Shown here: piece by piece, positions 1,551 to 63,205 of the stretch
Layout: the number at the start of each line of letters is the position of its first letter
How positions within the stretch are numbered: the stretch's first letter is position 1
Assembly: GCA_009192285.1 (NCBI GenBank)
Contig: CM018604.1
Span: 2,418,001 to 2,482,000 of the forward strand
Direction of reading: 5' to 3'
DNA length: 64,000 nt
DNA from: Morchella semilibera
Taxonomy: Eukaryota > Ascomycota > Pezizomycetes > Pezizales > Morchellaceae
The notes under the pieces: generated by a model
The model's input: only the letters and a program-made list of their open reading frames with translations
Databases searched by the model: none
What the model was told of the DNA's origin: nothing
Made by a program: the position numbers and the translations under genes

Positions 1551-3613
1551 CTGTTCCTGCAGGTCTATGGAGTCGGCCGTGAATTTGAGATAAAGGGGAC
1601 TTTTTTTTTTGGCCACCGGTTAACGAAATTCAAGTTTTGATTTATGAAAAGCGGATATTTTTTCGATTATTTGTATATGGGAGGCAAAGGTTTAAAATAA
1701 CACAATCAGAGCGTGAGATATTTTTCAGAATGACTGCTTTTGGAGGAAAATATTTGAAATGATCGTATGATTTAAAGTCTCCGTATATTTAGCAAAGTCA
1801 GCCGGGAGCTGCAGCTATGGATGGAATTTTTAGTCTCTTGAACTGTCTGTCAGCAAGCCCATTTGGAACTTATTTTGGATAGTGGATAGGGGAATGTGGG
1901 TTAGTACATGACAATAGGGAGTTGCGATAAGGCTACAGAAGAAGCGGGGGTAAAGGGAGGTTGGTAAAGTTACGTCTCTTTCCCGTGTTTCGGTGATAAA
2001 ATGTTGCCCTGACCCACCCCAGCATGCCCATCAGTAATCTGCGTGGTCATGTTACATCGACTTGTGTAATATGGACTTGAATACATGTGCTATGAAAGTA
2101 GCAATTGGGATATAACTGCCGGTTTTGACATGTAAAGTCTCCAGTTAAGGTATCATTTTTTTTCCAAATACCCTGGGTTAGCAGGTACATGTAGCCACAT
2201 GTATTATGTTGGACGAACGATATATATAAAAACATGCGGGCCATGAAAATTTTCAGTCAGTGGCGTAACTTAGCCAACAATGTGATACGGGAACAGGCGT
2301 CTTCGAGCTCGTTTGTGTATGTATATGTACTACGTTCGTGTGCGGGTCTGGAAATAAGTGCACATCATTCCTGGGACTTTGAATAAGCGGTAATTTATCA
2401 GATACAATTGGCTTGGTTCCAAAGTTGGAGATGTAGGGGGTAAGGGACATAGCTAGACGTGCCTTACGAGGGATCTGAGAGGCCTTAATCCATCGATCTA
2501 GAACCAAAATTAACCGTTATACTGCATGTATCTCCATGTGAGATGCGGATTTGAGGCCGGAGCGCTAAACACAACTATGGAGGTTGCCCTATTGGATTTC
2601 ATTGTATTGACTTGTAGCTGACAAGACCAAGTTATGTGTGTATACATGTATACAGGCTCCTGTGAGAATGTATGTACATACATGTAGTCTTGTAGACACT
2701 TTGGGTCAACCCCTGGATACTACATTACATGTAATTACCATTAGGAATAAATATAGCACTGGCTTTGAACACTCCAATGAGTTCATGATCATATAGATGT
2801 ATGTTTACATGACTTATTTATATTTTGTCTGAAACTCTCACTAGATCTGTCTTTAAGCCACGCCAAATTTATTTCTGTGGTAACACGTGTGTTGGGCCAT
2901 GGGGCGGGGTTTGAATTTTGGATACCCGGGAATGGCGCGAATAAGGTCACATACATGCAGTACATTTACCTAAATGGTTACTTTATTTTGGCTACTGCTC
3001 GCTGTAATTCGCTGCTCCTACGTGGAACACCATAATCTTAAACAATACGACATGTGGGCTGCTAGCTAGATGTAGTTTCACACCATGGTACAAACCGGGT
3101 ATGTTTTGTACACAGTTTAGACCTTAAGTACATGTACATGCATGTACACCACTACCAGATCAGTACGGCTGTGACTATATAATTGTAGTTACTGTATGAA
3201 TTTACTTTGGGTCGGGTCTGTCAGGATTCTCCCACATCTAACAGCTCTAATGAAACGTGCAGAAATTATTATACCTACCCGCCGGAGGCTGGTTGGGCGC
3301 ACTAGTGCTTGCAACCCTCTCAATAGTAAAATGAATTCGGGATTTTTGCTTATTCATCATACACTTATTTAATAAATAAGCTCATCTAGCTTGTCTAGTC
3401 TTCAAGGCTAACTTGAAGATTTTACCGCGCCTGGTTTACGAGTGATGTCTCATGATGCTGACTTGCTAGCACCCCCGATAAATTCTTCATCCGTCGCTCT
3501 AGTGGGAGTTAATGATTTACCAAATTGAAGATCAAATTTAATCCTAAAATTTAACCGCAGGGTTATCAAAATCTACATATATCTATAGATGGTGCGGTAA
3601 ACGTGTCAAAAGT

Positions 3614-3896
3614 GATTTTACCAACGGTGGTAAATTATTTTACCACCGGTGGTGAAAATAATACCAGCATTTATACCTCAAAATAGATAATAGCACAGAC
3701 CTTTTCGCCAAAAGGGGCTATATAATGCCAGTATATATGAACATTGTCCACCAGTGGGAATTTCACCACCAGTGGTAGGCCATTTTACCACCGGTGTGAA
3801 ACTGTTGGTATTAATGATAATGCAGAATAAAGACTGAAAGTCAGCATTTATACTGGAACAAGGACTGAAATTCGCTTATACAACCGTTGGTGAAAT
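3614..3896. repeat. Cluster of six palindromes around ACCACCGGTGGT
   Basis: Six related palindromic units occur near 3615-3634, 3638-3658, 3746-3760, 3761-3779, 3783-3802 and 3880-3895. Each is built on ACCANNGGTGGT and several are flanked by TTTT on the left and AAA on the right. A direct repeat GCATTTATAC is also present at about 3667 and 3844. The units vary in the central two bases. No reading frame explains them. They could be decayed inverted-repeat elements or clustered binding sites for a dimeric protein. Confidence 0.6.
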
Positions 3897-4300
3897 TACT
3901 TCTGACACATTTACCGCTCCATATAGAGGTTACAATTGAGACCAGTCCAGGCATGTCTCCGGTAGAATACAACGCATTTAAGGAGGTGAGTCCACCTACT
4001 TCAATTGTCACTTCTCGAACCACCAGCATGAATTGACAGATATGGGTAACAATGTTTTACTTTGAGCCTCGCTTTCATAAAGACTGTCAAAAACACCGAG
4101 AGTATTGGTAGAAACAAGGATATAGGCATGCATCGATATAGGTACATTTAGTCTAAATATATAAGTGATAGACCAGATACACCCACCCCTCCTCGGCTCG
4201 GGGTGCCTCATAGATTGTATTATTCTTCCGTAGTTGTTGTATTATAGCTTCTGAGCCTGTTTTAGTCAATGTTGTCAAATGTAGCCGGGTCATAGGTTTA

Positions 4301-4419
4301 GGGCCTGTTTGGAAACAGGCCAAAACGGAGTTTTCACCCTTGTAAACTCCGTTTCGACGATTCTTTTGTTAGGGCTGGATCTTTGGAAACTCCATTTTGT
4401 CTGGTTGCCAAACGGGGCC
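4301..4419. mobile_element. PIF/Harbinger-like MITE, 119 bp
   Basis: The left end reads GGGCCTGTTTGGA and the right end, read as reverse complement, GGCCCCGTTTGGCAA. They are imperfect terminal inverted repeats of the GGSCCYGTTTGG type, well known from PIF/Harbinger (Tourist-like) elements. The element is flanked on both sides by the trinucleotide TTA (4298-4300 and 4420-4422), the usual target duplication of that superfamily. Inside are two nested hairpins, one with GCCTGTTT/AAACAGGC arms and one with AAACGGAGTTT/AAACTCCGTTT arms. There is no coding capacity, so it would depend on a transposase encoded elsewhere. Confidence 0.6.
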
Positions 4420-5367
4420 TTATATATACAAATATACCATGGAAGGTCGATCGCGGCAACGCTGTAGGTTTCCGGTGTCTGCCCCGCCTCCAAAGTTCTC
4501 ACAGGTACATGTATATATATAAGTATATAAGGTACTTTTTTATGCTATAGTAGTTAGGTGACTAATTCCCTACTTCTTGCACATTCCTGCACGCGCCTGC
4601 AGTCGGCGGTGATGGCGGGTGAAAGTGCGAGTGATAATCCATGAAACTGAAGCAAACGGCCCCCCCGCTTATCTTAGATGTCCCAGGAGTTTTAACTACA
4701 TGTACATATAGTTTTAATCTCAAGAAACTCAGAATATATAAAATTATACATATATACATGTAGCTATGGGGATGATTACCATTTAATCTTACTCGTTAAC
4801 GTTCTCTGCCTGCGTCTTGATTGAATGAGTGCAGATACAGAGATAAGTACATACTAGCATGACATGGGGGTACTTGACGGGATACATGTATGCCAATACA
4901 TTACTCAACTGCGTGTACGTGTAAAGTATATGCATATAAAGTTAATCTCAGTTTTAAATTATTGCATCATGACATTCAATACCAGTGCTACCTGTAGCCA
5001 AGCATCATCTGACAGAAAAAATTTAACCCCCCCCCCCCCTTTCAGGTTGTCTATGAGGCTCGGTTCTTTCTCGAACCCACCAACAGCAAGATAGCACTGT
5101 GGGCCGCTCTGTGCTGTTCTCCGTAAATCTGAAATATTCCCACCTCCCCTCACCACCCATCACTATTCATTAACCACTCAACATTAACCATCAACCTGTC
5201 AACATAGCTAATCTTTATCTCTATATCTTTTACCGGATAGCATCCCAGTCTTCACCTTCGATTTCCTCATCCGTCAATATTTCTGTCTGTTTGTCGCTGA
5301 ACCATCTTCGTTTGTATGGCTTAGACGATTGTAAACAAACGCACAGCCAACGAAAGGACAACCAAAC

Positions 5368-13455: not shown

Positions 13456-13528
13456 AGAGCTTTTAGGGGCTTTTTTTCCCCCTCTCTCTCTTTATTGCCA
13501 CACGGCTATACAAGTACGGTGTGCACCT

Positions 13529-13567
13529 CTTTTCTTTTCTTTTCTTTTCTTTTCTTTTCTTCTCCTT
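13529..13567. repeat. (TTTTC)n microsatellite
   Basis: About six to seven tandem TTTTC units, ending in TTCTCC, start about 75 bases after the helicase stop codon. They probably lie in the 3' UTR or just beyond the transcript end. Confidence 0.9.
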
Positions 13568-15035: not shown

Positions 15036-15085
15036 GTACTACGGGTGTAGGGGTAAGTCTGGCCCTACCCCTACACCCGTAGTAC
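15036..15085. mobile_element. Collapsed TACTACGG hairpin element, 50 bp
   Basis: Perfect 20-bp arms (GTACTACGGGTGTAGGGGTA at 15036-15055 and its reverse complement at 15066-15085) enclose a 10-base loop. The arm is identical to the outer part of the 32-bp arms of the element at 61987-62079. This copy therefore looks like an internally deleted member of the same MITE family. Confidence 0.7.
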
Positions 15086-16837
15086 TGTTTTTACATGTGC
15101 TCAAGACATGGAAGGAATGGATGGACACGGAGAAGAGGGAGAAGGAGAAGAAACTTGCTACATACCAGGGCCCCGGTGACATTTGGGGGGTGAAACACCG
15201 CGATTGACTTGAGTTCCCCCCATTCCATCTGATTCCATTCCTTTTCGGTGTTCTATTTCTGTTCGGCACTTTAATTTGATACATGTCGAGATCTTCGAAA
15301 AGGAAATGGTAAAAAAAGAAAAAATGAAATTCTACGGCAAATGTGGGGGAATGGAGGGGAAACAACAGATGACACTGACATTTAATTGTATGTAGTCTGC
15401 CATGCCGTAGCTGTTTGGCTGGCTAGAGCGCGACTCATGTTAATACCCTGATCGCTGATCGACTAAAAAGACTGTAAAACGAACGAACGAACGCGCGTAT
15501 TGTAGATACAGTACTCCATCTAGTATGGTAGTCCTTCCTTCACTCAGTAGGTGAATTTGCATTACCTCTGACTAAATACATACATACGTACAGCTCGTAT
15601 GTAGCTTATTATCATAATCACTATCGAGCTGCGCGCTGCACCTCCGCCGGACAACCCCCCGCGGAGTAGTACCTGTCTACATTTCCTACAATTTCCTACC
15701 ATTAATATCGAAGGCTAAAAGACGGCAAAAGACAAAAAATCAACACAATCATGTCATGAGGCTCAATTAATGTATGTACCTTACGTACCTTACCTTCAAA
15801 TCTAAGCATAAAAGAGGCGCACTAGACCGTGCTGCGCCGCTCCACCCTCCACCCCCCCCCTCCAGGGGAGAGGAGGCTCTTCCGTAAGGAGAGACACCCA
15901 AGGAGTCGGTGCAGTCGGTAAATTAGAGTAGGGATCAGGCCAGGAGGGAGGGGTGGGAAGGGTGGCACTGATGGTAGAAGGAAGGAGGGGTGGAAAGAAG
16001 GCGGGCAAGGCAAAGAGTGCGTTCAACCTCATCAACGGCCTCAACTAGGTAGATTCAACATCACGGTTTAGCAGCATACAAGTGAAATGTCACGCCTGGT
16101 GTACTCACTTCTCTCTACACACTGGTCTGCTAAAATGGACATGGTGGGGATAGATAGAGCCTACATGCTATATAGCTAACTACATGTAGCTTGCTCATGT
16201 CACTGCTCTATGAAACGAGTCAGTTAACTCTTCCCATTTACTTACCCAGAAGAGTAACCAATGCTATCTGCATGTATCTTCTATCTAATCTACGACCCAC
16301 CCACACTCCCTTCTATCGATTCCTCCCCAATCGGAAGTAAACTGATAAACTATGGTGTGCGTGGAGGCTCTGATTAAAAGCAGCAGTCAGCAAGCAGCAG
16401 CAAGCTCGCATCGCTCTGTGCATTGCATGGCAGGGATCATCTCTCGATCTCTGTTGACCTCTAGCTCTCTGTCTCTCTCTCTCTCTAGCGTTTTAGTTTC
16501 CCCATTTCTGTAGTTTGACTTTAATCTTTAATTTGGGAGAGGAGGTGGGGGGAGCCTGAGTTGGTCAATAAAAAACTGAAGAACAGAAATTTCAAAAAAA
16601 AAAAAAAAAAAAAAAACTTGCCGCATCGCATGACACTGCCGTTTCCGGAAATCTTTGTACCTATCTATCTACACATTATATCTGAACTGTATTACCAGAA
16701 TCTGTTACCTAGCACTCTCAACCCCTTTGCCTCTCAGAAGATCCTCGCCCGGGGTAGGGAAAGGGGAGGGGGGGGAGGTGGTCAGTGATCATACTCTACA
16801 CAAATGGCACCATGATCCTACCTACACTACTGGCATA

Positions 16838-16862
16838 CACCCATACCCATACCCATACCCAT
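16838..16862. repeat. (CCCATA)n microsatellite
   Basis: Four tandem CCCATA-type hexamers, in a region with no gene. Confidence 0.85.
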
Positions 16863-17256
16863 GAACGCAGCATTCTCCAAATGCCTCCCCTGCTAATATA
16901 CCCCCTCCCTTTCACCTCCTGCTCTCTCTTTTACTTGGGGCCGTATCGCATAACGCCGAGAATACACTTGCTTTGCCGATAGGTACAGGCGTCATATATG
17001 TGGAGTGTGGGTTAGGGTTATTTATGTGGGTAAGTACATGTAAGTACATGTGCAGCACATGTGAGTGTAAGTAAGCAAGCAGGCTAGGGTGGTGTGTGTG
17101 TGTGTGTGAGGAGAGGAGGGACGGAAGGTTTCAACTGCCTTTGGGGGGGTGCACAACCCACGAGAACACAGCAGAAGATCAAGAAGCAGGGACCTGCACT
17201 GCCGTCCGTAAGGGCGGGCGGGTGACATGATGACCTGAGGTCTCGTGGACACACGG

Positions 17257-17284
17257 CGAGACAGACAGACAGACAGACAGACAG
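17257..17284. repeat. (GACA)n microsatellite
   Basis: About six tandem GACA units; GACAGACAG recurs near 17697. Confidence 0.85.
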
Positions 17285-17947
17285 GTTGACAGCAAGAATT
17301 GAAATGTTAACGGCCGGCCCATATATACTTTAAAAATATATGGAGGGAAACATTGTGCGCACATGAGTGATCAGCCACTTCAGTGGGAAAAGAAAGAAGG
17401 AAAGAAAGAAAGAAAGAAAAATCCCGGGACCTTGACGGCGGAACGGTTGGGCAGGCCAGCGGTTAGGGGAACTACATGTATGTAACAGTAACAGACATTG
17501 GCAGGGGAGAGGGTGCATGTTTGTTGGTTTTGGTCTTAAGCTTTGGATTTGGTGGTAGCTACATGTACGTAGGTTACGGATAACATGTATATACGACATG
17601 TGTGTGTAATTTACATGTACAGCAGCTTACGGGGGTTGATGACATTCCTACTGATCGGGGGCGTATGGTATTATATTTTTGACAGTTAGAGCGGAGACAG
17701 ACAGACAGGGGAGGTTACGTGATTGCGCTTCTACTAGTGTAGAGTATATCAATCTACATGTACATGGTCGATCATGATAATATCGAGTGATCATGATCAT
17801 GATCGCTCTCGACTCCACTCACTCGGGGTTCGTGTAGCCAGGAACTTAATCCTCCGGGCACAGTAAGACTTTGGGCAGTAGGAGATAGCTTACATATTTT
17901 CTCCCTTCCACCGCAGGCGGTTTACGAAATTAACTACATGTAGCTCA

Positions 17948-18003
17948 TGAGAAAGAGGGAGGGAGGGAGAGGGAGGGAGGGAGAGAGGGAGAGAGAGGGA
18001 GGG
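17948..18003. repeat. Purine tract (GAGG/GAGA)n
   Basis: A run of more than 50 purines on the plus strand made of GGGA and GAGA units. Such homopurine tracts can form triplex DNA. Confidence 0.85.
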
Positions 18004-18566
18004 GTCTATGTTTGTAAGCCAGCCATCATCATGGGTGCAGCTGCAGAGCCTGCCATATATGTGGTGTGTGGGTGACCGTGATATACCAAAAACCCAAGTA
18101 CATGTAATGTATGATGTACTTATTCTCTCCAGCTATGTACTTCTACATGTACTCATCAGCTATAGCTATATAATTATACATGTAGTTTATAGCCCCGGCT
18201 CCTCTAAAGTACATGTATCCAATCACAATATATATATATATATAAAAAATAAAAAATAAAAAAAAAAAGCGTCGACGCCGGCGGAAATTCCAGAAGGAAT
18301 TAATCGTCTCCACACACGCGCACGCACACACCTCCAGCTTCTAGAAGGGGGGGCGGTGGGCCGTGGTAGTGGTGGGGAAACAAGAAAAGGAAAGAAAAAG
18401 GTACACCCGTGGTTTAGCTCAGTTGATCATAATAAGGCTTTTCCGGCCCGCGGGCGGAAGCAGAGACAGGAAAGAAAACCAAGGAAGCACAAGGCAAAAA
18501 TTTAAAGCTATGTTACATACATGTACCTATAATTGATTTATGCTTTTTTTTAAAAAAAAAAAAAAA

Positions 18567-31351: not shown

Positions 31352-32210
31352 CTAAAAACTAACACGTTCTACCACATACTGCGCCGCCGCCTCCGCATCA
31401 TCCTCATAATTCATATGCGGCGGAAGAGGCACTGGCCATCCCAAGCAGATCAGGTCCCCAAAGTGGCAGAACGTCTTGACATTACCATTTAAACTGCCCG
31501 GGAATGGATCTCCATTGTTTGGGTCTCCAAAGAGCACGATTGCACCCACATTAGCATGGAGTGCGGACGGTATCTTCTTCGCCGCCTTGTGAACAACTTG
31601 TGCCCCTTGGCTAAATCCCGTATGCCCCGTTAGTTCACGCTCTCAAGCCCGATATAAATATCTACGAGACCACGTACCTAAATCCCGAGAGCACAACCTT
31701 TGACTTTGGGCACTTGGTCGCAGCAGCAACAACCGATGCCGCCATATCTGCGGCCCCCGAGTCCGACCCACCGCCCAGATACCCCCACACGTCGGCCGGA
31801 TAATTATTTACGCCCTGCACGGCCACCTTGCCGGGCCGTTTCTTGTCCAGCTCCCCGAAGAAGTAAGGCCCGACATCGTCACCGACGTTACCGGGTTCGG
31901 TAGTACCGCGGGCGAAGATGACGATGACGGGTGCGCAAGGGCCCCCCCCGAGAAGATCGTTGCGTGTGGTCTTGACTGCTTGGGTGCTGAAGGTGCCGGC
32001 ATGTTTTGCGGCACGGAGATCGCGGAATGCTGATTCGATGGCAGTGACGGGTGTGGAACCAGATGGCGCAGCGGGGATCTCGGTGGCAACGCCGGCGCCG
32101 GTCTCGGGGGTTGCGGGATCTGATCCGTTGACCTGGCCTTGGGGAGCGGCATGGACGGTAGAACCCAGAAGGAGGGAGGTGAGTAGTGCGGTGATGGGTA
32201 TAAAGACCAT
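31352..32210 (-). CDS. Cutinase family (CE5) secreted esterase
   Basis: Two exons: 32210-31678 and 31610-31352, encoding 263 aa. The intron (67 nt, GTACGT, CTAAC branch point) splits the catalytic serine codon. A signal peptide is evident (residues 1-21, cleavage after VHA). A Pro/Ala/Ser-rich stretch follows, then the cutinase core: FARGTTEPGNVG (99-110), GFSQG with nucleophile Ser178, GDLIC with Asp230, and His243 in PPHMNY. Cys92, Cys167, Cys226 and Cys233 sit where the two conserved disulfides lie. The family hydrolyses cutin-type polyesters or acetyl esters (acetylxylan esterases are CE5 too), so the substrate is uncertain. Residue 177 is Phe where Tyr is usual (GYSQG). The protein is extracellular; neighbours give no pathway hint. 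Confidence 0.92.
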
Positions 32211-44865: not shown

Positions 44866-46074
44866 CTTCCAAGATGGCTGTTAGTACTTACTTGTAGCCT
44901 CGAAATCAGTAGATGCACATGCAAATGTCGATGCATATCTGGGAAATTTTGTTTTGAAGAACCGAGGATACGGGAGAGCTATCTCCATCGGAAGAAGCCT
45001 TCCCGAAATCGGAACACCAGGGGAAGCGGAAGCATCATGAGATTACCGAAGTCAGGGTACATACATGTATGTACTTTGGCGAACCTTTGTTTCCCAGGAC
45101 CATATATTTGCCAGGGACTAGACAATGCAATATGGAAAAGAAATAACCGCAGCGATGATTCGAATACAAAATTTATATACTCTACGTGAAGCACCGCATT
45201 TAGGTAAGCACCGTTAGACACTTTCTTCGTTACAGGGTTTGTTCTTGGGTGACTAAGCGCGCCCCACTCTCCACATCAGAAACCCAACCGAACCAATTGT
45301 TTCCCCACCAAGACACCCTCAGTACGGCGTTGTCATTGACGTCGTCGTCGTTGTCACCACTACCTCAGCAGCTGCTGCGCTGTCACAAAGTAAGAGCAAA
45401 CCTCTGTAACGGCGGGTATTATCATCACTCCACCCCTCATAAGCAAGGTGAATATAGTTCAATTAGTTCTTGTCAAGTACCTATCAAGCGAACCCCCCCC
45501 CCCCCCCACCTTCTTAGTGCTTCGAGCCCTCCTCCATCCATAGGCACTGCCACCGTCACTGCCACTACATATCACCTCCGCCTCCGCTTCCACCTTCTTC
45601 CTCTCATCACCAGCTACCCGATCCCACCCTTCCATCTTTCCCCACAGATTACCACCCTTCCAAAAAGGCCTAGAGCCCCCCCCCCCCGTTAATCGTCGCC
45701 GCTTGTTCTTATCTTTTATTCTCTGTGCTATTTTCCGCCCTTACGCTCTGCTGCACTTACACTTAGAACTCAACAAACCCCTCTCCCTTTGCTTCCCACC
45801 CACCCCATCCACCCATCCATCCAAGTGAACTTAACGACGCTCCACGGAATCTATTTCAACAACGACTAACGTCGGATATCATTCCGCACCAGCCAGACGG
45901 AACTCTACAACGCCTCCGCTAGAACAAGCAATCCAGCCCCGCCATTACTTGGGAATCACCAATCCTCCCACTCAACCTATCCTTCCTCACCCCTCACCCC
46001 CCCCCCCCCCCCTTTCTCCCCCACCATACCTCCCCACACCCTCCTATATCCCTCTTCTCCAACCTGCAGTCATC
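44866..46074. promoter_or_regulatory. Shared divergent upstream region, about 1.2 kb
   Basis: Lies between the divergent starts of the Ser/Thr-rich gene and the PP2A B-subunit gene. From about 45480 to 46070 the plus strand is strongly pyrimidine-rich (C runs of 10-15 bases near 45489, 45677 and 45998, plus many CTCC and ATCC units), typical of the promoter/5' leader of a well-expressed fungal gene. One ACATGTA palindrome occurs near 45060. Confidence 0.5.
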
Positions 46075-48878: not shown

Positions 48879-49373
48879 AACTACATGTATCAACCTTTAA
48901 TGAACCAGAAATTAATTCAACGTTTATACAGTTACTATAGCCGTTGAAAATTTATAAATAAGGATGTAATATATACGTCACGTGTATATAGGTACATGTA
49001 TGTATATATTGTAAGTACATGTACATGTATGTCATTGTTTACACTAATACATATCCCATTCTCTTAGCAAGCCCAGAGCTAGACGGGTTCTTTTCTAAGC
49101 CCTGGAGATCCTTCCCTTAAGACCGAGGTGAGTTGGGCAGTACATCAGGTAATGGCCTGGGCTGAGAGAGTCGTAATTATTTTCTTTTTCGATACATATG
49201 GACCCAAAGGTGGCGGCAAGCAAAAAAGAACACTTGGGTGGAATGTTTCATGCGTTTTAAGTCCGCTGCGCATTTTTTTTGTAGCAAAAATATCGTAATC
49301 GCCAATCCGCCAAGGCTAGCCCCAAGCTCGGCTAGAGATATTTTAAATTTCAACTCCACGTATACAGGCACTT

Positions 49374-51018: not shown

Positions 51019-54000
51019 TCAGTCAGGAGTATCGGTATCAAGGTTCCAAGCAGATTCGTTCCCAATATTAAATTCAGGAGGAAAGTTCTGCTGAAACTCT
51101 GAGATGCCGGGATATCGATCGGCGGTGTTATCGACGCCTTCAAACATAATCCAATCACCTCCCGTTCCGGTCATCATGGGATTGGTCCTGGTCCCACCAC
51201 GGTCGTCAAAATCATTGGGAACAATAGACAAAGGGCTTTGATCATAGTCGGTATTAGTGATGGGAGATCCCCAAGTGAAATCGTTTCCATGGTCCAATAG
51301 GGACAAAAGATAGTCGTTTGATTGTGAGACATGAGGAATTTCGAAGTTCTCATTAGGCATGACCGGAGTTGAAGACTGTGACTCATTTGCAATAGATGTG
51401 TTCTTTTTCCTTCTGGTCGGGGTAACCGCTACCCCCTGATCTCTCCTCCTGGGATTCCTCTTCATTCGCTTGTACACATACGCATGTGCCTTTTCCATGT
51501 GCTGTTTGCAATTGCTCTCACGTTTTGATTTGTAGGTGCAAGGGGCAAATTCACATTTCCACTCTTTTGAATTTAAGGCGTGTATGTCATTCTGGTGACG
51601 TTCCCTCTCCTTGTTCGTAGGGAATCCTTCGGTATGATATTTGCAAGTTTTGATGTCGCATTTGAAAGGACGATCATGTGTCTTGCGATGTTTCGTGAGG
51701 TCACAAGGGCGGGGGAAGGTCTTTTGGCAAAATTCACAGGAATAGTTGGGAGGTTCCTTAGAGTTGGCCCGAGAGATAGGCGACGAATGAACTGGGGAAC
51801 CAGCACTAACGGCAGAAGCGGGCTCAATTGGGGACACCGTGAAACTAACCAAAAGGGGAGCCGGAGCATTCATGGGTGCCTGCAGGGTTTCTGGCGAGTA
51901 TCCACCGTGACCATTGATGATGGCAGTAGGCAGCACCTGGTCATTAGTTTGCCATGTCTGGGATTGATAATACGCTCGAGCATCGCAGGATTGACTTTCA
52001 GCGGTGGTATTTTTTGTGGTCTCATCAAACTGGAAAGTGGAATTATTGCCGATGTGGCTTTGAGGATGACCAACCAATTGACAGGAAGTATAAATGGTGG
52101 ACGGGAGGTGGGTAAGGATTTCAAGCTGTTTAGATGGATTGTTTTGCCTGAGCTTCGGAGTTGGTTTAAAAAACGGTTCTTCGTTGAAATCGGTAGTGAT
52201 CACTGGTCTTTTGGAAAGAGGCGCCTCAGCGTCAATTGACAACTTTCGCTTAGATATTCGCTGTTGGGCATTGGAATAATACGTGGCAGGTACTATCCCA
52301 AGCTGATGCCGAACATCCAAAAAATAGCCGGGTGTGTATGGGATGTCTGTCTCCCGAACACGGTCTTTCTCAAGAACATCAGGGTAGGCATTTTGGATCC
52401 CATTCAAGAGGGCATCGAAGAACTTCTTCGGTGAAACAGATGAGCTCATTTTCTGCGTCGGATAGTTAGTGGGGAGCCCTGCAAGAAAGAAAAAAAAGAA
52501 AAAAAAGGAGTACCGTGGGGATATATACATTGACCATGTTCGTAAAGTATTTCTCCACGTCCCTCAAACACCGAATTTGCCCTTGATACATTTTTTCTTT
52601 CGCAGAGGAGAGAACCCCCTTTAATCCAACAAACTCAGAATTATCACTCATGGGAGAAATTACATGTCTCTCAATTGCGTGGATGCTCTGGAAGTCCATT
52701 GTCCTGCTTAACTCGTGTTTAGTAAAATGGAAAGATGTCGGCGAGAGAGTTGCCGAGCTCGGAGGAGTGAGCTCTTGGAAAGGTGCTACTGTGTAAGACG
52801 AGCCGGCTTCGGAGGCGAGGCTTGGTCGGCCCATAAGACTTCCATTCCCTAAGCCAGCTTCAGTGTCTAGTGAAGGAGTGACTGAAATCCCCCTTGCGTG
52901 TCCTGAAAGCGTGTTCGTCCCAGAGCAGCCAGTGGTAGCAAAACCTTGTAGTTCTGTATTGGCGCCGTTCGAAGCAAGAGTTCCAGGACTACCCATTGTG
53001 GACCCAACACCGGAGTCACTGACTGGACCCTGTATCGCCGGAGCAGCAAGAAGTCCCAGAGCTGTTGCCGACCGGGGGTGTGGCAACACCTCTCGATGCT
53101 CGCCTGGGCTGTCCACAGTCACTACAAGCTTTTGGGTGGGCTCCTGGATGGGCTCCTCTGGATCCGGCATATACTCTGCAGTCTGGAATTCGTAATCCCC
53201 CATAATGAATTCTAGCGCATTTAAGTCGCCAATAGCGATGAACTCCTCGTCCAACATGTCATTCTCATCCAGGTAATTGCTAGCTCCAGGGCTGATGAAA
53301 AAGGTGGGCACTGGCTCGTCTTCAGGTCCAGCTTCCTTCTGGGATTCCTTGGGAATTCCCTGAGTTTGATCAAGGGTCTTGAGGTGTGGCTCTAACTTAG
53401 AGTGCATGCGGTCCATGTATCTTTGTTGGTGTTTCTCGAGGTCCTTCCCAACCGGGTGAGTATATGATCTGCCCGGCGTGGGTGGAGAAATATTAGGGGA
53501 CGTATTTGGAGATGGATAAGGTTCGGTATGTCGCTTGAGTATCGTCATCGTGGACGCTGTAGCTGGGTGTTGCTGGTGTGGTATTTGCACAGCTAATGAT
53601 GGAACGGGCGATGCACTGCGAGTTATGCTGAAATCTTGTTCCCGATAGGAAACTTTCTTTTGCTCTCTGCAGGAAGGCTGTGTTAGCTTATTTATGTATT
53701 TTTTGGGCTGTGCGAAGTGCGAAGAGCCAAGCCATCATAAAATGGGAACAATAAAACAGATCAAATGAAATAGATTGATCAAACACAGGTTTGATGGGCA
53801 GACAGTGGGTAGAATTGGTAGAATAGGAGGTAGGGGGAAGACACACTGTAACGTTGTTGAAGGACTGGAAGTAGGGTATGAGGATGTGTTTCTGCTACAT
53901 GTAGTTTTGTAGAGAATTTGGTCAGCTACTTGAGCTGTAGCTACATGTAGTGACAACCACTAAATGAAAAAAAAAAAAAAATCGAAGGCATAAAAACGTG

Positions 54001-54284
54001 CGAATTTCGAAACAGAACAGTTCGCAAAAACATAAAAGGAGCAGAGAGGTCTCTCCCCCCATGAGGATCTGGCGGGGGTGGGTAGTGGGCGCGGGGTGAC
54101 GATATACAAGTGTGCACGTACGTGAGTGCGCACCGTTGGGTGTACGGATTGCGTGGGTTGTGTGCGCAACAATAACCTAAAGTGGAGCAAAGAAACAGCA
54201 AGACATAAACACATACCTAGTATGCTCCTGGTCTTTTTCTCCTCTTGGTTTTTTTCTCTGTTGTCGTGTACTTGGGAGCCCCAT
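51019..54284 (-). CDS. C2H2 zinc-finger transcription factor, 879 aa
   Basis: Three exons on the minus strand: 54284-54217, 53666-52529 and 52452-51019. Intron 1 is long (550 nt, GTATGT...CTGCAG, CTAAC branch point) and contains two ACATGTA palindromes. Intron 2 is 76 nt (GTATAT donor, CTAAC branch point, pyrimidine tract). All junctions are in phase. The N-terminal 640 residues are acidic/Ser/Pro-rich and disordered. Three fingers follow: CEFC...HRKTH (641-661), CDIKTC...HQNDIH (667-693) and CEFAPC...HMEKAH (702-725). The KSKRESNCKQHMEKAH signature is familiar from a conserved group of filamentous-ascomycete C2H2 proteins. A basic KRMKRNPRRR patch (NLS) and an acidic tail come after. The start is the least certain part: the frame is open upstream of Met 54284 to about 54480 without another ATG. 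A shorter model would begin at Met 52449. Confidence 0.75.
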
Positions 54285-56730
54285 TACTGAAGAAGCTGGC
54301 GTAGAGCTAAGATATTCCTTACGTATGTTTGTGTAGCAGTGCTCAAGTCGCAGAGGGAGGGTTGTAGGGGTCAATGAAAAAGAATTGCTTTTCTGAGAAA
54401 AGAGTCGTACCGCTTTGTCGAATTTTCCAAGAGTGATTTTTTTTTTTTGGTCTTTGATGGAGGGTTCTATGGCTCGCTAAGTAGTAGGTGGATGGGGTTG
54501 ATTATAGGGCCTGCGGGTGTAGTAATAGTACAAGTGAGGCTCTGTGGGATTTGGATGGGTACCCCAGTTTGGTGTGGATGATTCGGTAGTAGTAAGTATA
54601 ACTGAAACCAAATGAAAACTGCAGCCGTAAGTGATGGATATCGATGATGACCTCCGATTTTTCCCTGCTGGCCGATCTCTTTCTTTCCCTTTTTTACTGC
54701 CGAAGGAGCTGAAGGACCAAAGAGGGAAAGATGAAAATGAAAAGGAAGAGAAGAAAAAAAAAATAGAAAATAGAAAATAGGAAGTAGAAAATAGAAAATC
54801 GAATCCCGAAAGGAGAGTGGTGGCCGGAGCAAGGCTGATAAAAATGGAGCTCTCTTAACCACAGATCACTCGCTTGCACAACCTCTTGGGATCAGAAATA
54901 TTGTACAGGACGCAACACAACTGATATATGATATTGCTTGCTCTAAAGAACGATCATATCGAAGGGGGGGGCAATGAGACGAATTATGAACAGAGCAACG
55001 AGCCAACGAGAGCTCCGGTTGGAGATGCCATCCATCATACATTTCAACTAAGCAAGCAGCAAGAAAAGGGAAGTTAGCGGGTGAATTGGGTTCTGACTGA
55101 GCCCGCTTCAGGAGGCTTCGTGAAAGACTGTTTCTGTGGAGGAGTTCAACCTTCCCAGGCGCACAGCTACATACTGTACCATATCGTAACGTGCAGTGGG
55201 GCTGTTGCCTAGTGACTACCCCTGTCTTGCAGGTCTGCTGCGTCTGTTAGCCAATAACATCCCCGTCTAGAGGTTGGGGCAGAGCAGCGCATACCATTAG
55301 TTACGTCCCTTAAGTGAAGGGGTTGAATATGCTGTCATCCAAAAGGAACCCGAAAGTGAAGACTTGAAGACCGTTGCTGTAAACATATCGACAGGAGGCG
55401 GTCAAACGTCCGGTAGATGCGTGGGTTTTACGGCTTCGGACATGCCATTTGTTATTTCTTTTGAGACCAAGATTCACAAATGACCAGTACTTTCTGCCCT
55501 GTACCTACTGCTATCGCTGACCAAGTGAACCACGTCCAGGCCCTTTGCCCGGAGATTCTGGGGGCTCGGGTAACTTTTTTACTATTTTCCATTTATTTAT
55601 TTATTTTTTTCTTTCTTTTTTTCTTTCTTTTTTCTTTCTTTTTTTTTTTTTAAAGTGCAAAGCGGCAGTGAGCTCCTTAGTTTAGTTGCGCGCTCCTTCT
55701 TTTGACGCGACCAGCCCAAGCCATTTACCGCAGAAGCCGCTGGAATTCAAGCATCAAACCTGGAAGCAAGCTATCTACACATGCAATATGGACGGAGCAG
55801 ATTCTCGGATAATATGTTGGTATCATGATATAAAGATAGAAAGAAGATGTCTATAAAAATAACCCAATTCGGTCGGGGAGGGCAGAACAGGCTCGAGTAA
55901 GTACTCCCGCTTAACATATCGTGTGCATTACCCGGGAGGGCAGTACATGATGTATGGACAGGTGTATGTATGGTGCTGAGAGGGGTGAGGTGGGGGGGCG
56001 TGAAATTCGGATGGGGAACACAATGGAAGAGCCAGTAGAGTGCTGCTTAGTGATAAACCAACCCCCCCCCCCCTCTCTCTCAACGGAAGCAAGCGAAGAC
56101 TCATAAGCCACGATGTGCACCCCGCTGCTGCTGCGTGTGAGTGCTGCGTGTGCTGCGGGTTTACAGTCACTAATCCATGCACAAACACGGGATCCCTGCG
56201 CAGAGCCTCATACACCTGATCGTGATCTGCACCCGTCACATCTATTGTACGTACATGTCGACATGATGATACCGTGCCGGACTGATTGGACCGTATTATT
56301 ACACTCCTCTCCTTAGCGTACATGAATAGAGCCCCAATTGCAACAGGTAATCATTTTTAATCTTTTCCCGACTGTTATTACTAAATTTGACTGAGATTGA
56401 GTCGACGGATCGACGATTCATTAGTACTACATGTAGGACTATATTTGATATAAGTACATACATGTACTTATATGCACCTAGGAGGAGTATATGAATTGCT
56501 CGGACAGGTAATAGGAATTCGAAAATGTAAGTTGTAAAGCAGGGCCCAATTTGGTGTAGCTTTTTGCTAGTCGCGAATCAGAGGCTGTTACCGTTAAAAG
56601 CCATTTTCAGGTTCTTACTGCCTGCCCCGGGTATATTATAATGTATCTACCTACTCTACATGTAATTCATATACATGTACCTATATGTACAAATTTACAG
56701 GACGTACTTACCATACGGTTAAAACTACAT

Positions 56731-56819
56731 GTACTACGGTGTGAAGGGTAAGTGAGTAGAACTCGGCGGTGCGGTTTGCGTTGCTACGTTCTACTCACTT
56801 ACCCTTCACACCGTAGTAC
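56731..56819. mobile_element. TACTACGG-family MITE, copy C (89 bp)
   Basis: Perfect 32-bp terminal inverted repeats at 56731-56762 and 56788-56819. They begin GTACTACGGTGTGAAGGGTA and continue into AGTGAGTAGAAC. The spacer is only 25 bases. The outer sequence is related to, but diverged from, the element at 61987. Confidence 0.75.
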
Positions 56820-56901
56820 TACAGTTGTAGGGGTAAGTCTGTAGACAGTGGTCGTGGTTGCAACAGCAGTAGGTGTCTACAGCCTTATACAACCGTAGCA
56901 C
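56816..56901. mobile_element. TACTACGG-family MITE, copy D (degenerate)
   Basis: Starts in the last GTAC of copy C. The left arm (GTACTACAGTTGTAGGGGTA…CTGTAGACA) pairs imperfectly with TGTCTACAG…CAACCGTAGCAC on the right. The core contains GGTTGCAACAG, matching CGTTGCAACAG in the element at 61987, so it is an older, decayed copy inserted next to or into copy C. Confidence 0.5.
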
Positions 56902-59900
56902 ATGTACACGACTGCCCGGTGCTATGAAGTATGTGGCAAATGTGCTTTACATATTGTAGATGTAGATACATGTAACACTCACTGTATTTTTAAGTACATG
57001 TAGTCTAAGTTCATGTACCTACATGTAGGTACATGTGCCTACAATACCGTATTGTATTGTTTAAATCAACTTACCTCTTGACGGTGTAGGTGCATTGGCG
57101 GCGGCGCTCCACCCACTCACTGGTAACACACACACCCCAACCCAAGAAACATGTGAGAAATGAAAGCCAGCCACCAAGAGCCGCGGATCCTCTACCTTGT
57201 CTTGTGAATTCATGCGTTCCAGATTTTCGGAAAGACAAAAGCGGTCATATGAATTAAATGTAAGCGGCGGCGCTTAATCTTTACGCAATAAACCCAACTC
57301 TCTATTCCCCTTGGGTACATGTAGTGCATGTAACTCTCTCAACCATTATCCAGGGAAGAGAGATTGTGATCGATCCCTTTTCTACATGTACTAGTAGTGT
57401 TAAGTTAAAAAGAAGTTCTACGAATTCAAAATGCCATTAAAAAAAAAAAAAGAAAGAAAGAAAGAAACACGTGTAACCTCTAGATAAGTACATCATCAAA
57501 CTATAAAATTGAAAAGCAAGGACGTCCTTCTCTCGTCTAAGAACAGCATAGCATCCTCCCCTTCTCCCGCTTCTAACTACCACGCGAATATGCGAAGCTT
57601 CCATCATCGCTACCGAAAACTTGAAACTGACCACGGCTGTGCTTTGCATGCTACTCCGTGGTTAAATTAGCGAACGAATCGTCGAAGTCAGCGGTAGAGG
57701 CTGAGGATTTGAGAAAAGCCCGGGCGGTTACAGCACGAAATGGAAACTACTATACATACATAGAACCTCGCAGTGGCTGATATTCCCCGCATCCACAAAC
57801 CTCGGACTTGGGGCTATTCCTCTCTTTTATCACCCGCATGAGCGTGGCTCGTGCAAACGAGACACACACGACAGCCGCAACGTGAAGGGGTGACGAGAGA
57901 ACATTTGAGTGCTGACTTACCCAAAGCTTGAATGTTTCTATTTCTTTTAGGCAGTTCCACGGAGGAACCCTTCCTAGTGAGTTACTTGTAAACATGTGCT
58001 CTAGGTAACCGCAGAATCTGTGTGTATTTGCTTTTTTGATTCACACTGCAATTAACCTTCCTCTTTTTGAAAATTTATCGAGTAGCATTCTTTCATGCTT
58101 GGACGAAAGGCCCAGGGGAAATCCCTAGCATCGAAAAAGCAAACGGATAAAGACCATGTATCGCGCGAAGCAATGGTGAGTTACCGATATCTAAAGTTGA
58201 GCTGAAGTTGAGCACGCCTCCGTGTATTCTGCCTCCCACGTTTGTTTAATTCCTAATTAATGCCGTGACCCTAGTTCCTGTCCACTAGGCGTTAGTAAAT
58301 AGATGCTCTACTATCTTCGGCGGATTTCCATAACACTCAGCCCGCCGATAATCCTGGGTTCCGATAATCGATTGCCGAAAAGATTTAGGTCTTGTGTGTG
58401 TGTGTGTGTGTGTATGGGATTCTTTTGCCTTTCTTCTACAACCCTTCTAGAAGAACTCTCCACCCCAGAGCAACGTGTGATATTAACCCTGGCCCAGATT
58501 AAACGATAAGCTTACCGGGCGTGAAATTCGGAAATGAAACATCCGTCTAGTCAACTCGTATGCCTGACACGGCGGGGGGCGAGTTAACTGTGCGCGTGGA
58601 AGTAGAGGAAGTAATTCGCATAACCATCTCCATATTTTCCTATTTTCACAATACGCAGAAGGCAACCATGCACGGCTACAATTCATCTACTTTAACATGC
58701 GGTCCGGCGGAAACGGCGGCGGCGACAAAGACGACGACAAAGAGGGTGCATGTATCTAGTGTGTAAAATTAAGCAGACGATGGCCAAATCAATGTGTATC
58801 ATTTTGCCGCCTATATGTATTCTCCCCGCAATTTAAGGCTTACTGTAAGAGGTCGTACACCTTTGGGGTTTCATGTACCTTTTTAAGCTTATAGCGGCCC
58901 GAATGAATTCGACAACTCCATCGATGTTCTATGTATAGAGTCAAGCCATCGTAACGATATTTATTTATAATGCCTAACACTTCCGTTTTCCTTCTCCACC
59001 TAGGAGCGCATGACGGAGTAATGACCTGATTGAACAGCTTAGGCAATCGGTTGTTTTTTGCTTAATTCCGTTATTAGTGACTTTCCCCCCTTTCTCTGCT
59101 AAATCGGGGGTGTTGTGGCTGTCATAATCATTTGAGGGTTGATGGGACGGATGGAATGGGATATGGATATCGTAATAGGTGTTAGTCTCTCCTACTGGCT
59201 GACTTGTGCTTTTTTCTTTTATGGTGTGGCTGTCAGCAAATGTTCCGGTGGGCGATACGATGAAACCCTTCTAGAAGTGTGTAACGGAAGGAAAGAAGGA
59301 GGAAAGAATGCGCCGGTGTGAGACATCCTTGAAATAAGGCAACAAAAACGCTAAATGCCAGTGGGATGTGCCGACCGCGTGTGGTATTTGGTCAGAGTTG
59401 AGGGTTCTGGAAAGGAGACACGCCCCTAGTTCTAGAAGCACATGTACAGATGAGGGGAAGGTTGTTGCTGCTAATAGGACATCTAACGTCTGGATGCATA
59501 TTGGGGTGGCGACATGCATCCGCAGAGGCATCTGTGCATTCGGGGTCGTCGAACGCAGAGCAAGACAAAAGGTAAAGTCACAGGTTTGCAACTCGAATGA
59601 TTCTGTTCCAAGCACCCTAATTACATGTATGTCCTTATCGTGCAGCTTTAGCTTGGAGTAAGGGTGTCTCCGTGTGTCTCCATATGTATTATATAGCAAG
59701 TAATATTTGCCTAACTGCTGGCGTACGCAAATCCCTACATATCTCGGCCATTCCTGGGATTCAAAGGTGTAAGATTCCCCCCCATACACGCTCCTTGATG
59801 GAGCATGATTCACCAAGCATTTCAAGGCTAACTCAGTGCTAGAGACCAGCACATAAGTACGTAAGTTTCATTCAAACAAGTCAGTACACTCATGGTCCCT

Positions 59901-60403
59901 ACATATTGAAGTTGATTAAATCCCTCAACGCTTGAGCAATTAATTCTTGAACCTGGATTTAAGACATCAATTACTGCTATAAGATCTATAAGGTATATGT
60001 GGGGTACATTTAGTAAGTAAAGTGGCGACTTTAGACCAAATTTATCGACTCTTATCAGCTAATTATAAGTATACATGCACGTACGCATATTTCATCTAGA
60101 ATCAGAAGAAAGAAGGAAGGAGGGATACATGTAGCCACGAGACTAGTTGTGGCATGGATCACAAATTACAGTGAGGTTACGTGCTGCTGCTTGGTATCCA
60201 CGAAATTGTACCGATGAGGAATCTCGAGTGATCAGCTCCGGTTGTGGTCAGATAGCAAGTGAGAACCCATGAAGTATCGACTACATGTAGTATGCCCTGA
60301 TGAGTTAGTGTCTAAGAACAAGCAACAATCTTGGAACATCACACATATTTTCACTTGTGGAAGCGGGTATCAAGTAACAAGTCATTACAGTCCCGCCATG
60401 GAA

Positions 60404-60437
60404 CCGGGCTAAATAGCTAGTCTTTCATTTAGCCCGG
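60404..60437. repeat. Hairpin with 11-bp arms
   Basis: CCGGGCTAAAT and ATTTAGCCCGG form perfect arms around a 12-base loop. It is isolated in non-coding sequence. Confidence 0.7.
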
Positions 60438-61986
60438 CGTGGACAGGCATACCCTTTCTTACTCCTGAGTTTCGCTCACTCCCCCACAACCGCACCTAGA
60501 AACACGGTTAAACTTTCTACAATACTAACAGGGCGGGTGTGTCAACCTCGAAGGGGGGTTTTTTTTATATGGAATCAGGGAAAATTCCACTGTTGGGCTA
60601 GCCACCTGAAATATTATGGGTAACTGGCGGTAATATTATGTCTATGGGATACATGAACAAACAAGAGCCTCTGAGACATGATCCGTTTTACTTGATTAAA
60701 GCGCGCGCGAGTCCGGGTCATGGTTTGCATTTTTGTCGCCCAAAGGCCTATAAATTTAAGGGTGAACGACAAGCGTTCCCAGCAACTAAAGACCTTTGCG
60801 AAGCAAAAGGTAAGATTCTGTCTTGCTGGAACGCGGAACGCTGGAAGTAAATCTGAGTATTCTTGAGAACGTTCCCGGAAGCAGGGATGCGACCGGCACG
60901 CTGCAGTTCAGGGATGTGGCGCAGGGTTAAGCTAAGCGCAGCGAAGATTTAATATAAGTAGAGGCAATCCCCGCACTAGTTAAGAAGCGACGAAGTCGAT
61001 TCAACCCACCATTCGATAGGTGGGGCCTGAGACAGCACGACAATCATGCCTCCTAAGTCAGTAATGACAACATCCTAAATATTCACGCCGGGGTGCGAGC
61101 CAATAGCCATAAACACCGACGAATTCTACCGAAGATTTACAGAGTTTATCCAACTATTCGAAGACTCGGATTATGACGGGGACTATTTGGATGGGGACTC
61201 ACGGTGTACGGATGTAACTCGCGCGTACTGGTCATTGCGAGGCTGTCAAAGGTATCAGGATAGGGCATGAGCCGAGTGTTTTCTATTTCTTTGGCGTTTT
61301 GGTAAATAGATTGTGGTGATGGAGTTTCGGTTGTATGGCGATTCGGCTGGGCGAATTATGTAATTTATTATTGATGCACTATTATGGATTGGGGACCCTT
61401 TGAGCGTAGCGAAAGAGGGGGACGAAGTCCTAATAGTGAGCAGGGCGAGCGCCACACAGAGCCAGAGGCGTAGGGGTGAGATAGTTGTTGGGTGTAGTTA
61501 TTCAGAATGTCGTTGGATGGATTAAAGTGGGTCACATAAACGCCCAGTGAGATCATCATCAATCACTCGATACTCCTCCACGAACAACAGCGTTGTAGTT
61601 TGATTTATTTTGGGGATGGTTACTAGTAGATAAAGGCTCTAAATTTGTTCGTGCGCTTAAATAACTTTAAAGTATGTAATAAGAGATATCCGGAGAGTGA
61701 GTATCCTCCTATTCTTGGGGTAATGAACGATGAACACTGCTAAAACATTTTATCTTGGCATATAGAGTTTTAGGAAAGATCACCGAGGTTCTTTACTTTT
61801 TTGCGACCGATCAATCCAGTATCTCATTGATAAAAATAGACGACTTGGGCATCGGGTAGACACGCATGGAGGTATTATTATGTGAGGCCTTATGACCGTA
61901 AAAGAATAAAAGAGCAGATAGGAGGGGTTGTGATAGATATCGATCTCTCCTAAGCGCCCCAAATCAAGGTCGCTGTACCTCCGTTT

Positions 61987-62079
61987 GTACTACGGGTGTA
62001 GGGGTAAGTCTGGCGACACTGGAGCCTGTCGTTGCAACAGTTCTTACTGTCGCCAGACTTACCCCTACACCCGTAGTAC
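61987..62079. mobile_element. TACTACGG-family MITE, copy B (93 bp)
   Basis: Perfect 32-bp terminal inverted repeats at 61987-62018 and 62048-62079, beginning GTACTACGGGTGTAGGGGTA and ending inward in AGTCTGGCGACA. The 29-base core contains GTTGCAACAG. The perfect arms suggest a recent insertion. A TA target duplication (Tc1/mariner style) is possible, since the arms start G-TA-CTACGG, but it cannot be told apart from the palindrome itself. Confidence 0.75.
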
Positions 62080-63205
62080 ATGCACCTTTTCTTTTCAAAT
62101 GGCCATCGTTAACTGGTTCAGTAATAGAGCGTCTCTAATGCCCAGGCACTTAAGGTTATTCACTTTAGCACTGCACACCCGGGCCAGCGGGGCCTTAACC
62201 TTCGGGTGCCGTATTGCTAGTAACTTAGTAACTGTTGCACCTCAGTTGACAATGAAGGTTGAGCTTACACTTAACTCAACTTGAGTAGGCCACGCTGGGC
62301 TAGAGGATACTTGAGGTCCCGTATTGCTATGCTGCTTGGTGACATGATCTGATCGGCAAAGAAAGGAATCGGTAGGTGCCTACAGCTTAACCGGCTGTAA
62401 ATGGTGGTATTCATGTACTTATGAGTCATATTGCGGATAACAAAAGGAATGGAGGGAGCCAGGGCGACAGATAGGTGGATGACGAGTAATGTATCTGTTT
62501 CATGATATATATAGTTAAAGGGAGTAGTTGTAACCATAGCCTATCACCCACTATGGCATGGCATTAGCCGTGATATATATATTTCTTTACATACTTGTAT
62601 ATATCTCTTGAAAACTTGTATTCCTGATGCTTAGAATGCTCTTGGTAGTGTATATATTCAGGCTCTTAAAATACATGCTGGATACAGGCACTCTACTAAA
62701 ACGATAAATATTCCTTATTTACCGTATTTATATCTATGTTAATTAGATTGGTGACCTCAGAGCTATTAGTCCTGACTCTGAATTACATGTAGTGTTGCAT
62801 ATTCTTTCCCGCGTTTTCTTCCGTTATATCAACTGGACCATTGCGTGTGAATCTAACGAACGGTGCAACTTCTGCTGCTGATATCTCACATAGTTAATAT
62901 TTATATTGTAGGCGAAAAGTTGCACTAGTATTGTCATAAGTCATGAGGTTACTAAACGCCCAGAGAGCTCACCGTTGACATCATAGGATATCACTCGTTG
63001 ATTCGATAGGTCAGTAGTCATTTGACAAAATCTTGGACCATGGCAACAGCACTTAAAAACAAAAACCGTGATACAAGTGTATAGATATTTAATAAAATAC
63101 AATTACCCACAACCGGAAGGTCCCTTTGTATAATGAAAATGTGAATCAAAAGCTTCCTAAGAACTTGCAAATCCCCTAGGGTAACGCCATGTAACATACA
63201 TGTAA

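What the first reader, a model, noticed from the sequence alone, without database searches (positions are those of the whole stretch)
2100..63200. Palindrome TACATGTA is hugely over-represented and confined to non-coding DNA
ACATGTA/TACATGTA occurs about fifty times by a hand count that is not exhaustive, whereas a given 8-mer is expected about once in 64 kb at even composition. All copies I noted lie in spacers or introns (two sit in the 550-nt intron at 53667-54216); none was seen in the exons. Density peaks at 2100-4900, 16180-18525, 29000-30200 and 56420-57390. Many are extended (GTACATGTAC, CTACATGTAG) or doubled. This could be a protein-binding palindrome, a target or remnant of a mobile element, or mutational drift toward a self-complementary word.
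Basis: partly seen in the sequence, partly recalled or inferred. Interest (0 to 1): 0.75.

Follow-up and report, generated by a model that had tools for sequence, protein, structure and literature searches.

The report
Spacer-confined palindrome TACATGTA in a morel
One eight-letter palindrome is scattered thousands of times through what appears to be a morel mushroom genome, almost always outside exons, and its placement and preferred ten-base pairing suggest it is the landing site of an unidentified DNA-binding protein.

Summary
The window has 56 TACATGTA against 0.77 in dinucleotide shuffles; none of the 56 falls in my predicted exons. The genome (56,756,124 bp, 23 contigs) has 22,206. Its size, contig count, longest piece and N50-sized piece match the published Morchella crassipes assembly. 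In a 314-kb de-duplicated sample (169 sites) the word is 41-fold over expectation in non-coding DNA, the strongest 8-mer apart from homopolymer runs. It is at chance in exons (1 site; codon-shuffle mean 0.82), four-fold rarer in predicted introns than in spacers, and nearly absent from repeats detectable in the sample. Mobile-element and blind-mutation readings fit poorly. Best reading: a selected binding site for a dimeric, cooperatively binding nuclear protein. That protein is unidentified, and no related species could be compared. The same octamer is a published Phytophthora promoter motif.

The parts
2186..4890 (.). 9 TACATGTA sites (2186, 2643, 2679, 2726, 3129, 4506, 4697, 4755, 4883) in the stretch before the predicted gene starting at 5368
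16181..18525 (.). 12 sites (16181-18518), including three at 33-bp steps (18144, 18177, 18210)
23791..24069 (.). 3 sites
25835..27480 (.). 4 sites
29066..30200 (.). 5 sites
39574..39581 (.). single site
45062..45069 (.). single site
48882..49029 (.). 4 sites, two of them overlapping (49016, 49022)
53896..53949 (.). 2 sites about 350-400 bp upstream of the predicted start codon (53548, - strand) of a gene with a weak C2H2 zinc-finger match (below Pfam's cut-off); possibly in a 5'-UTR intron
56428..57390 (.). 10 sites; the one at 56726 abuts a 90-bp palindromic repeat
59622..60289 (.). 3 sites
62784..63204 (.). 2 sites; 63197-63204 lies just past the predicted stop codon (63206, - strand)

Best explanation
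TACATGTA is the core of a recognition site for a sequence-specific nuclear DNA-binding protein. The protein would bind as a homodimer, one subunit per TACA/TGTA half. Neighbouring dimers would bind cooperatively, one helical turn (10 bp) apart on the same face of the DNA. The sites, about 1.9 per published gene before correcting for duplicated scaffolds, are kept by selection in intergenic DNA, somewhat more densely 100-1000 bp upstream of start codons. They are at chance in exons, scarcer in introns and scarce in repeats. The most likely role is transcriptional or promoter-chromatin control. SHOWN: the over-representation, the spacer preference, the extended dyad, the 10-bp pairing and the clustering. 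INFERRED: that a protein binds, that it is dimeric and cooperative, that selection maintains the sites, and the regulatory role.
For: Enrichment: 168 vs 4.1 expected in non-coding sample DNA, top of all 256 palindromic octamers (median observed/expected 1.13). Spacers 0.79 per kb, exons 0.011, introns 0.195; introns 3 vs 12.1 expected at the spacer rate, P 0.002; 100-1000 bp upstream of start codons 40 vs 28.6, P 0.025; 0-100 bp upstream 0 vs 3.4, P 0.034. CDS: 1 seen, codon-shuffle mean 0.82. Repeats: 1 site in 12,441 non-coding repeat bases, 9.8 expected. Flanks: A at -3 in 210 of 338 and T at -4 in 174 of 338 (background 27%), T at -1 in only 41 of 338. 10-bp spacing: mean match to the core at offset 10 is 3.12 of 8 vs 1.78-2.35 at the other offsets from 8 to 44; 20 of the first 100 listed pairs at d=10; genome-wide 606 at d=10, 891 in total for d=11-20, 2,584 for d=9-38. 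The two gap bases vary (9 different dinucleotides in 20 pairs), so these are not one simple tandem duplication. Clustering: 56 pairs within 100 bp vs 21.9 +/- 4.3 when sites are shuffled within their own non-coding interval.
Against: No binding protein was found and no related species could be compared, so conservation is untested. Promoter preference is mild: spacer beyond 1 kb, or not assigned to a gene, is almost as dense (0.79-0.85 per kb), and only 21 of 45 genes with at least 400 bp of upstream spacer have a site within 1 kb. The densest sampled 10 kb (L019, 15 sites) has no predicted gene. Predicted introns, though poor, still exceed chance (3 sites where composition alone would give about 0.3,'s rates). 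Everted half-sites TGTANNTACA (6,112) are no commoner genome-wide than the reversed control ACATNNATGT (5,992); that control also admits core-derived words such as ACATACATGT, which I did not count apart. Part of the flank preference is general: TA....TA words as a whole (cores included) have A at -3 in 38%, and the two flanks of a site vary independently (A at -3 on both sides 70, one side 79, neither 28 of 177). Transition neighbours are raised (126 vs 29 expected), which could be decayed or weak sites. Of 10 window frames sent to Pfam only 3 matched a family, one below its cut-off, so window gene models are mostly unsupported. Zone P values are uncorrected and marginal apart from exons and introns.
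Confidence: 0.66

Rival explanations
1. A methylation- or repair-driven iterated palindrome, as proposed for cyanobacterial HIP1: an enzyme acting on the word creates and preserves it, without the word being a regulatory site.
For: Palindromic, thousands of copies, steep fall to one-mismatch neighbours (exact 41-fold, transitions 4.3-fold, transversions 1.6-fold). Three MT-A70 methyltransferase matches in the genome, one closest in the PDB to 'Methyltransferase-like protein 2' (7cv6). A published HIP model links such words to methyltransferases (PMC4390886, abstract).
Against: A blind process should act in exons and introns too, yet exons are at the codon-shuffle level and introns four-fold below spacers. 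It does not predict the 10-bp pairing.
Confidence: 0.13
2. Excision footprints of Tc1/mariner-type elements: TA + CA/TG ends + TA gives TACATGTA.
For: PMC3520976 (passage) notes taCATGta as a rare Tc1 footprint in C. elegans. 69 DDE_3 transposase matches exist in this genome.
Against: Two shorter footprint-like words are at expectation (TACTGTA 19 vs 16.3, TACAGTA 15 vs 15.9); that footprints come in mixed forms is recalled. Repeats detectable in the sample are almost free of sites. Introns should take footprints as well as spacers do. 10-bp pairing and clustering are not predicted.
Confidence: 0.05
3. A family of tiny mobile elements or MITEs whose end or body carries the word.
For: One 90-bp palindromic repeat abuts the site at 56726 and has a second copy in L025.
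Against: Only 2 of 169 sites touch any repeat found between the sampled loci, and 1 lies fully inside; a 314-kb sample cannot show all repeats. Little flank consensus beyond about 10 bp.
Confidence: 0.03
4. Microsatellite slippage in alternating pyrimidine-purine DNA (TA/CA/TG tracts) that happens to make TACATGTA common.
For: TATATATA (105 vs 6.2), ATATATAT (117 vs 6.5) and CGCGCGCG (12 vs 0.5) are also raised, and TA dinucleotides favour even spacings. Direct TACATACA is raised too (27 vs about 6 with cores masked).
Against: Mixed alternating palindromes close to it are far lower: TGTATACA 14 vs 4.1, TGCATGCA 13 vs 3.4, CATGCATG 11 vs 3.6, CACATGTG 4 vs 3.2. The base before the core is most often C, which breaks the alternation.
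Confidence: 0.08

Closest known systems
Phytophthora motif-1 / M93 (PMC3520976; PMC3597505)
   Same: Identical octamer TACATGTA, very abundant in upstream regions (12,070 genes over three species), proposed homodimeric-factor site (passages).
   Different: Oomycete, not fungus; published as an upstream motif tied to infection-stage expression. The passages I read describe no 10-bp pairing and no genome-wide spacer census.
Iroquois (Irx) TALE homeodomain site
   Same: PMC3520976 states that Irx factors prefer TACATGTA (passage).
   Different: The only Homeobox_KN match found in this genome (L029) reads WFINAR, isoleucine at position 50 (position numbering and the Irx alanine are recalled), so it is probably of the TGACA-binding type (recalled).
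BEN-domain protein NACC1 site
   Same: NACC1 was crystallised on a 10-bp duplex, TTACATGTAA (passages of PMC11472053).
   Different: No BEN match in this genome, but no control genome rang either. T next to the core is avoided here.
Cyanobacterial HIP1 GCGATCGC (PMC4390886)
   Same: Highly iterated 8-bp palindrome at high frequency.
   Different: Here it is no commoner than chance in exons; host is a eukaryote; methylation untested.

Membership tests
Selected transcription-factor site | Enriched in non-coding regulatory DNA, chance level in exons | tested here: met
Selected transcription-factor site | Position preference relative to genes | tested here: inconclusive
   mild peak 100-1000 bp upstream, P 0.025 uncorrected
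Selected transcription-factor site | Conserved in related species | not testable with these tools
   no related eukaryotic genome is held ('no relatives here')
Selected transcription-factor site | A protein that binds it | not testable with these tools
   none identified
Phytophthora motif-1 | Consensus TACATGTA abundant upstream of genes | tested here: met
   40 sites in 36,182 bases lying 100-1000 bp upstream
Phytophthora motif-1 | Correlates with stage-specific expression | not testable with these tools
   no expression data
Irx-type TALE site | Genome encodes a TALE homeodomain with Irx-like residue 50 | tested here: inconclusive
   the single PF05920 match found has WFINAR, not Irx-like; domains split by introns could be missed
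BEN/NACC1-type site | Genome encodes a BEN domain | tested here: inconclusive
   no match, but no control rang
Tc1/mariner footprints | Mixed footprint words (recalled), sites wherever elements insert, introns included | tested here: not met
HIP (highly iterated palindrome) | Abundant regardless of coding status (recalled for HIP1) | tested here: not met
   exons at chance
HIP (highly iterated palindrome) | Cognate DNA methyltransferase | tested here: inconclusive
   three MT-A70 matches of unknown specificity

The most novel reading that the evidence does not exclude
Morels use one abundant, cooperatively binding protein as a genome-wide spacer-marking or promoter-architecture factor, with roughly two TACATGTA sites per gene on a 10-bp pairing rule. 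This would be a eukaryotic, selection-maintained counterpart of an iterated palindrome, arrived at independently of the identical Phytophthora motif.
Probability: 0.27. Interest if true: 0.8.

Novelty: new variant of a known kind. Interest (0 to 1): 0.57.

Why it matters
A single exact octamer about 30 to 40 times over expectation in a eukaryotic genome, at chance in exons and preferentially paired at one helical turn, is a strong handle on an unknown nuclear protein in an economically important fungus. It can be tested at once by pull-down, ATAC-seq and comparison with other morel genomes. Its identity with the Phytophthora motif raises the question of whether two unrelated lineages converged on the same site.

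Tried and rejected
Excision footprints, MITEs, microsatellite slippage and an Irx-type TALE factor were tested and lowered. TA-step nucleosome periodicity: TA pairs at 10 bp are not special once cores are masked (1,267 vs 1,162-1,330 at 9 and 11-13 bp). Everted half-sites alone: 25 in the sample vs 6 expected with cores masked, but no better than the reversed control genome-wide, so I do not lean on them. Allelic variation: contigs C9/C10, C12/C13 and C21/C22 are the same sequence where sampled, without mismatches, so no polymorphism test was possible. Rfam on the window: nothing at gathering scores. 5.8S search: one match below the cut-off, locus not cut. Scan of IMG/VR for paired sites: 15 stretches, each with 2-6 cores in the DNA held, probably chance. 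Plasmid search with 56400-57400: none. Paper searches for a report in fungi: TACATGTA alone gave 290 papers, of which I saw the 40 listed; with fungal/promoter/motif 9 papers, of which I opened the two P. infestans motif papers; ACATGTA with Morchella 0 papers; the Pezizomycetes search listed 15 of 333, with ACATGTA in none of the 15; wider searches listed 15 rows each, and I saw in those rows no report of the word in a fungus. Papers: PMC3520976, PMC3597505 and PMC11472053 passages only; PMC4390886 abstract and outline; PMC7014384 abstract, outline and part 1 of 2 of its Results; all others search listings only.
Full report
WHAT WAS CHECKED. TACATGTA occurs 56 times in the 64-kb window; 100 dinucleotide shuffles average 0.77 with a maximum of 5. 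It occurs 22,206 times in the genome the window belongs to (G000, 56,756,124 bp in 23 contigs), against 3,723 for the reversed word ATGTACAT. ATGTACAT is itself raised (29 vs 4.3 in sample non-coding DNA), partly because overlapping cores contain it.

ORGANISM. No name is given, but genome size, 23 pieces, a longest piece of 7.34 Mb and a 3.00-Mb piece match the published Morchella crassipes assembly: 56.7 Mb, 23 scaffolds, longest 7.34 Mb, scaffold N50 3.00 Mb, 11,565 genes (PMC7014384, abstract and part of Results). This is inference by matching numbers. A cutinase and ordinary eukaryotic genes such as NUP159, Sec7, MCM3 and Vps39 fit a fungus.

SAMPLE. I held 28 further 10-kb stretches. Three of them (L010, L013, L022) repeat the sequence of L009, L012 and L021 with zero mismatches (indels only in the first two pairs, identical in the third). 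I dropped them for the de-duplicated counts, leaving 26 sequences, 314 kb and 169 sites. Searches were made before this removal and carry duplicates; one search used 21 sequences, the others 29 (177 sites). L029-L033 were excluded from counts. A self-trained gene model gave 60 genes in the 29 sequences. Support for it is partial: 8 of 10 long frames I chose from other loci matched a Pfam family, one of the eight a retroviral protease in L004, but only 3 of 10 frames from the window did, one below Pfam's cut-off.

WHERE THE SITES ARE. De-duplicated: exons 1 site in 89,636 bases, introns 3 in 15,368, other spacer 165 in 208,996. The exon count equals the codon-shuffle expectation (0.82; duplicates included there). 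Introns are below the spacer rate (3 vs 12.1, P 0.002) though above pure chance. The 100 bp before start codons have 0 (3.4 expected), 100-1000 bp upstream 40 (28.6 expected, P 0.025), the 250 bp after stop codons 4 (8.5 expected, P 0.075), and 250-1000 bp downstream 14 (18.9 expected). Spacer further from genes stays dense, so the promoter preference is at most a mild bias. Of 45 genes with at least 400 bp of upstream spacer, 21 have a site within 1 kb. Non-coding bases inside repeats detectable between sampled loci hold 1 site where 9.8 are expected. Of the sampled stretches without sites, L021 has no predicted genes and shares repeats with L005 and L024, L004 carries a retroviral-protease frame, and L003 and L006 are gene-rich. 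Against a simple gene-linked picture, L019 has 15 sites and no predicted gene, while L017, also without a predicted gene and with 3,891 bases in detected repeats, has 1.

WHAT THE SITE LOOKS LIKE. In non-coding DNA the exact word is 168 vs 4.07 expected; its 8 transition neighbours 126 vs 29.3; its 16 transversion neighbours 111 vs 68.7; all two-mismatch words 1,282 vs 1,018.6. It ranks first of 256 palindromic octamers. The flanks extend the dyad: A at -3 in 62%, T at -4 in 51%, and T at -1 in only 12% of 338 flanks, with composition close to background from about -11 outward. As controls, A at -3 is 38% for TA....TA words as a whole (cores included), 26% for other TA-initial palindromes and 19% for ATGTACAT; the left and right flanks of a site vary independently. 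The flank pattern resembles a weaker second TACATGTA placed 10 bp away: at that offset 27 of 338 flank words match 6 or more of 8 letters and 8 are exact; at the other offsets from 8 to 44 the numbers are 2-12 and 0-4.

TEN-BASE PAIRING. Genome-wide, exact cores 10 bp apart number 606, distances 11-20 together 891, and distances 9-38 together 2,584; so 10 bp is about 6.8 times the mean of the next ten distances. The variable-gap searches seem, from their listings, to count each start once, so the per-step comparison figure is a slight underestimate. In the 100 pairs listed, 20 are at 10 bp. The two bases between cores vary. Sites also cluster beyond this: 56 pairs within 100 bp against 21.9 when positions are shuffled within their own non-coding interval, and 121 against 64.7 within 300 bp; 11 of 43 non-coding intervals longer than 1.5 kb have no site where 4.5 are expected.

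MECHANISM. A dimer reading TACA/TGTA halves, with adjacent dimers one turn apart on the same face, explains the palindrome, the flank half-site, the pairing and the clustering together. Selection for such sites in regulatory spacer, and no need for them in exons, introns or repeats, explains the distribution. None of this shows binding or function directly.

CANDIDATE PROTEINS. PMC3520976 notes that Irx TALE homeodomains prefer TACATGTA (passage). The one Homeobox_KN match found in G000 reads WFINAR in its recognition helix (read by eye from L029), the isoleucine-50 class that I recall as binding TGACA, so it is a poor candidate. NACC1, a BEN-domain protein, was crystallised on a TTACATGTAA duplex (passage), but BEN gave no match here, with an uninformative control. 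Three MT-A70 matches exist; the best PDB relative of one is 'Methyltransferase-like protein 2', which I recall as a METTL4 protein. The published paper counts 309 transcription factors, 61 of them homeodomain-like, so many candidates remain.

RIVALS. Tc1-type footprints, MITEs, slippage and a HIP-like mutational process each explain the palindrome but not the intron deficit, the repeat deficit and the 10-bp pairing together. The HIP-like reading keeps the most weight because the neighbour spectrum falls steeply and methyltransferase genes exist.

KNOWN OR NEW. The octamer itself is in print as Phytophthora motif-1 / M93. I found no report for a fungus in the searches, which cover only the open library and only the rows listed. 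I therefore rate this a new variant of a known kind: an abundant palindromic site, in a new lineage, with a pairing rule that I did not see described in the passages I read.

Noticed in passing
G000 contigs C9/C10, C12/C13, C21/C22 (L009/L010, L012/L013, L021/L022): Pairs of contigs carry the same sequence where sampled: 0 mismatches over about 9.3-10 kb. The assembly seems to hold redundant scaffolds, which would inflate genome-wide counts and perhaps gene numbers.
   Followed up: partly
window 56731-56820; L025 7626-7715: A 90-bp inverted-repeat (MITE-like) element with two copies 96% alike in the sample; it abuts the TACATGTA at 56726.
   Followed up: partly
window 3589-3917; L007 6010-6355: A repeat (354-column alignment, 79% alike) with internal inverted ACCACCGGTGGTAAA-type units, without TACATGTA inside.
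   Followed up: no
26 sampled sequences: Runs of 8 or more C or G are common and almost only outside predicted exons (C 35 vs 2, G 35 vs 0); CCCCCCCC is 145 vs 4.4 expected in non-coding DNA.
   Followed up: no
26 sampled sequences: Inverted half-sites TACA...TGTA with gaps of 18 and 19 bp are also raised (16 and 19 vs about 6 expected with cores masked); unexplained, may be chance among many gaps.
   Followed up: no
G000:C20:703988-704452, C1:527575-527970, C11:192885-193430: Three MT-A70 methyltransferase matches; the first is closest to the solved structure named Methyltransferase-like protein 2.
   Followed up: partly
window 31352-32210 (-): A predicted two-exon gene whose first exon matches cutinase.
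   Followed up: no
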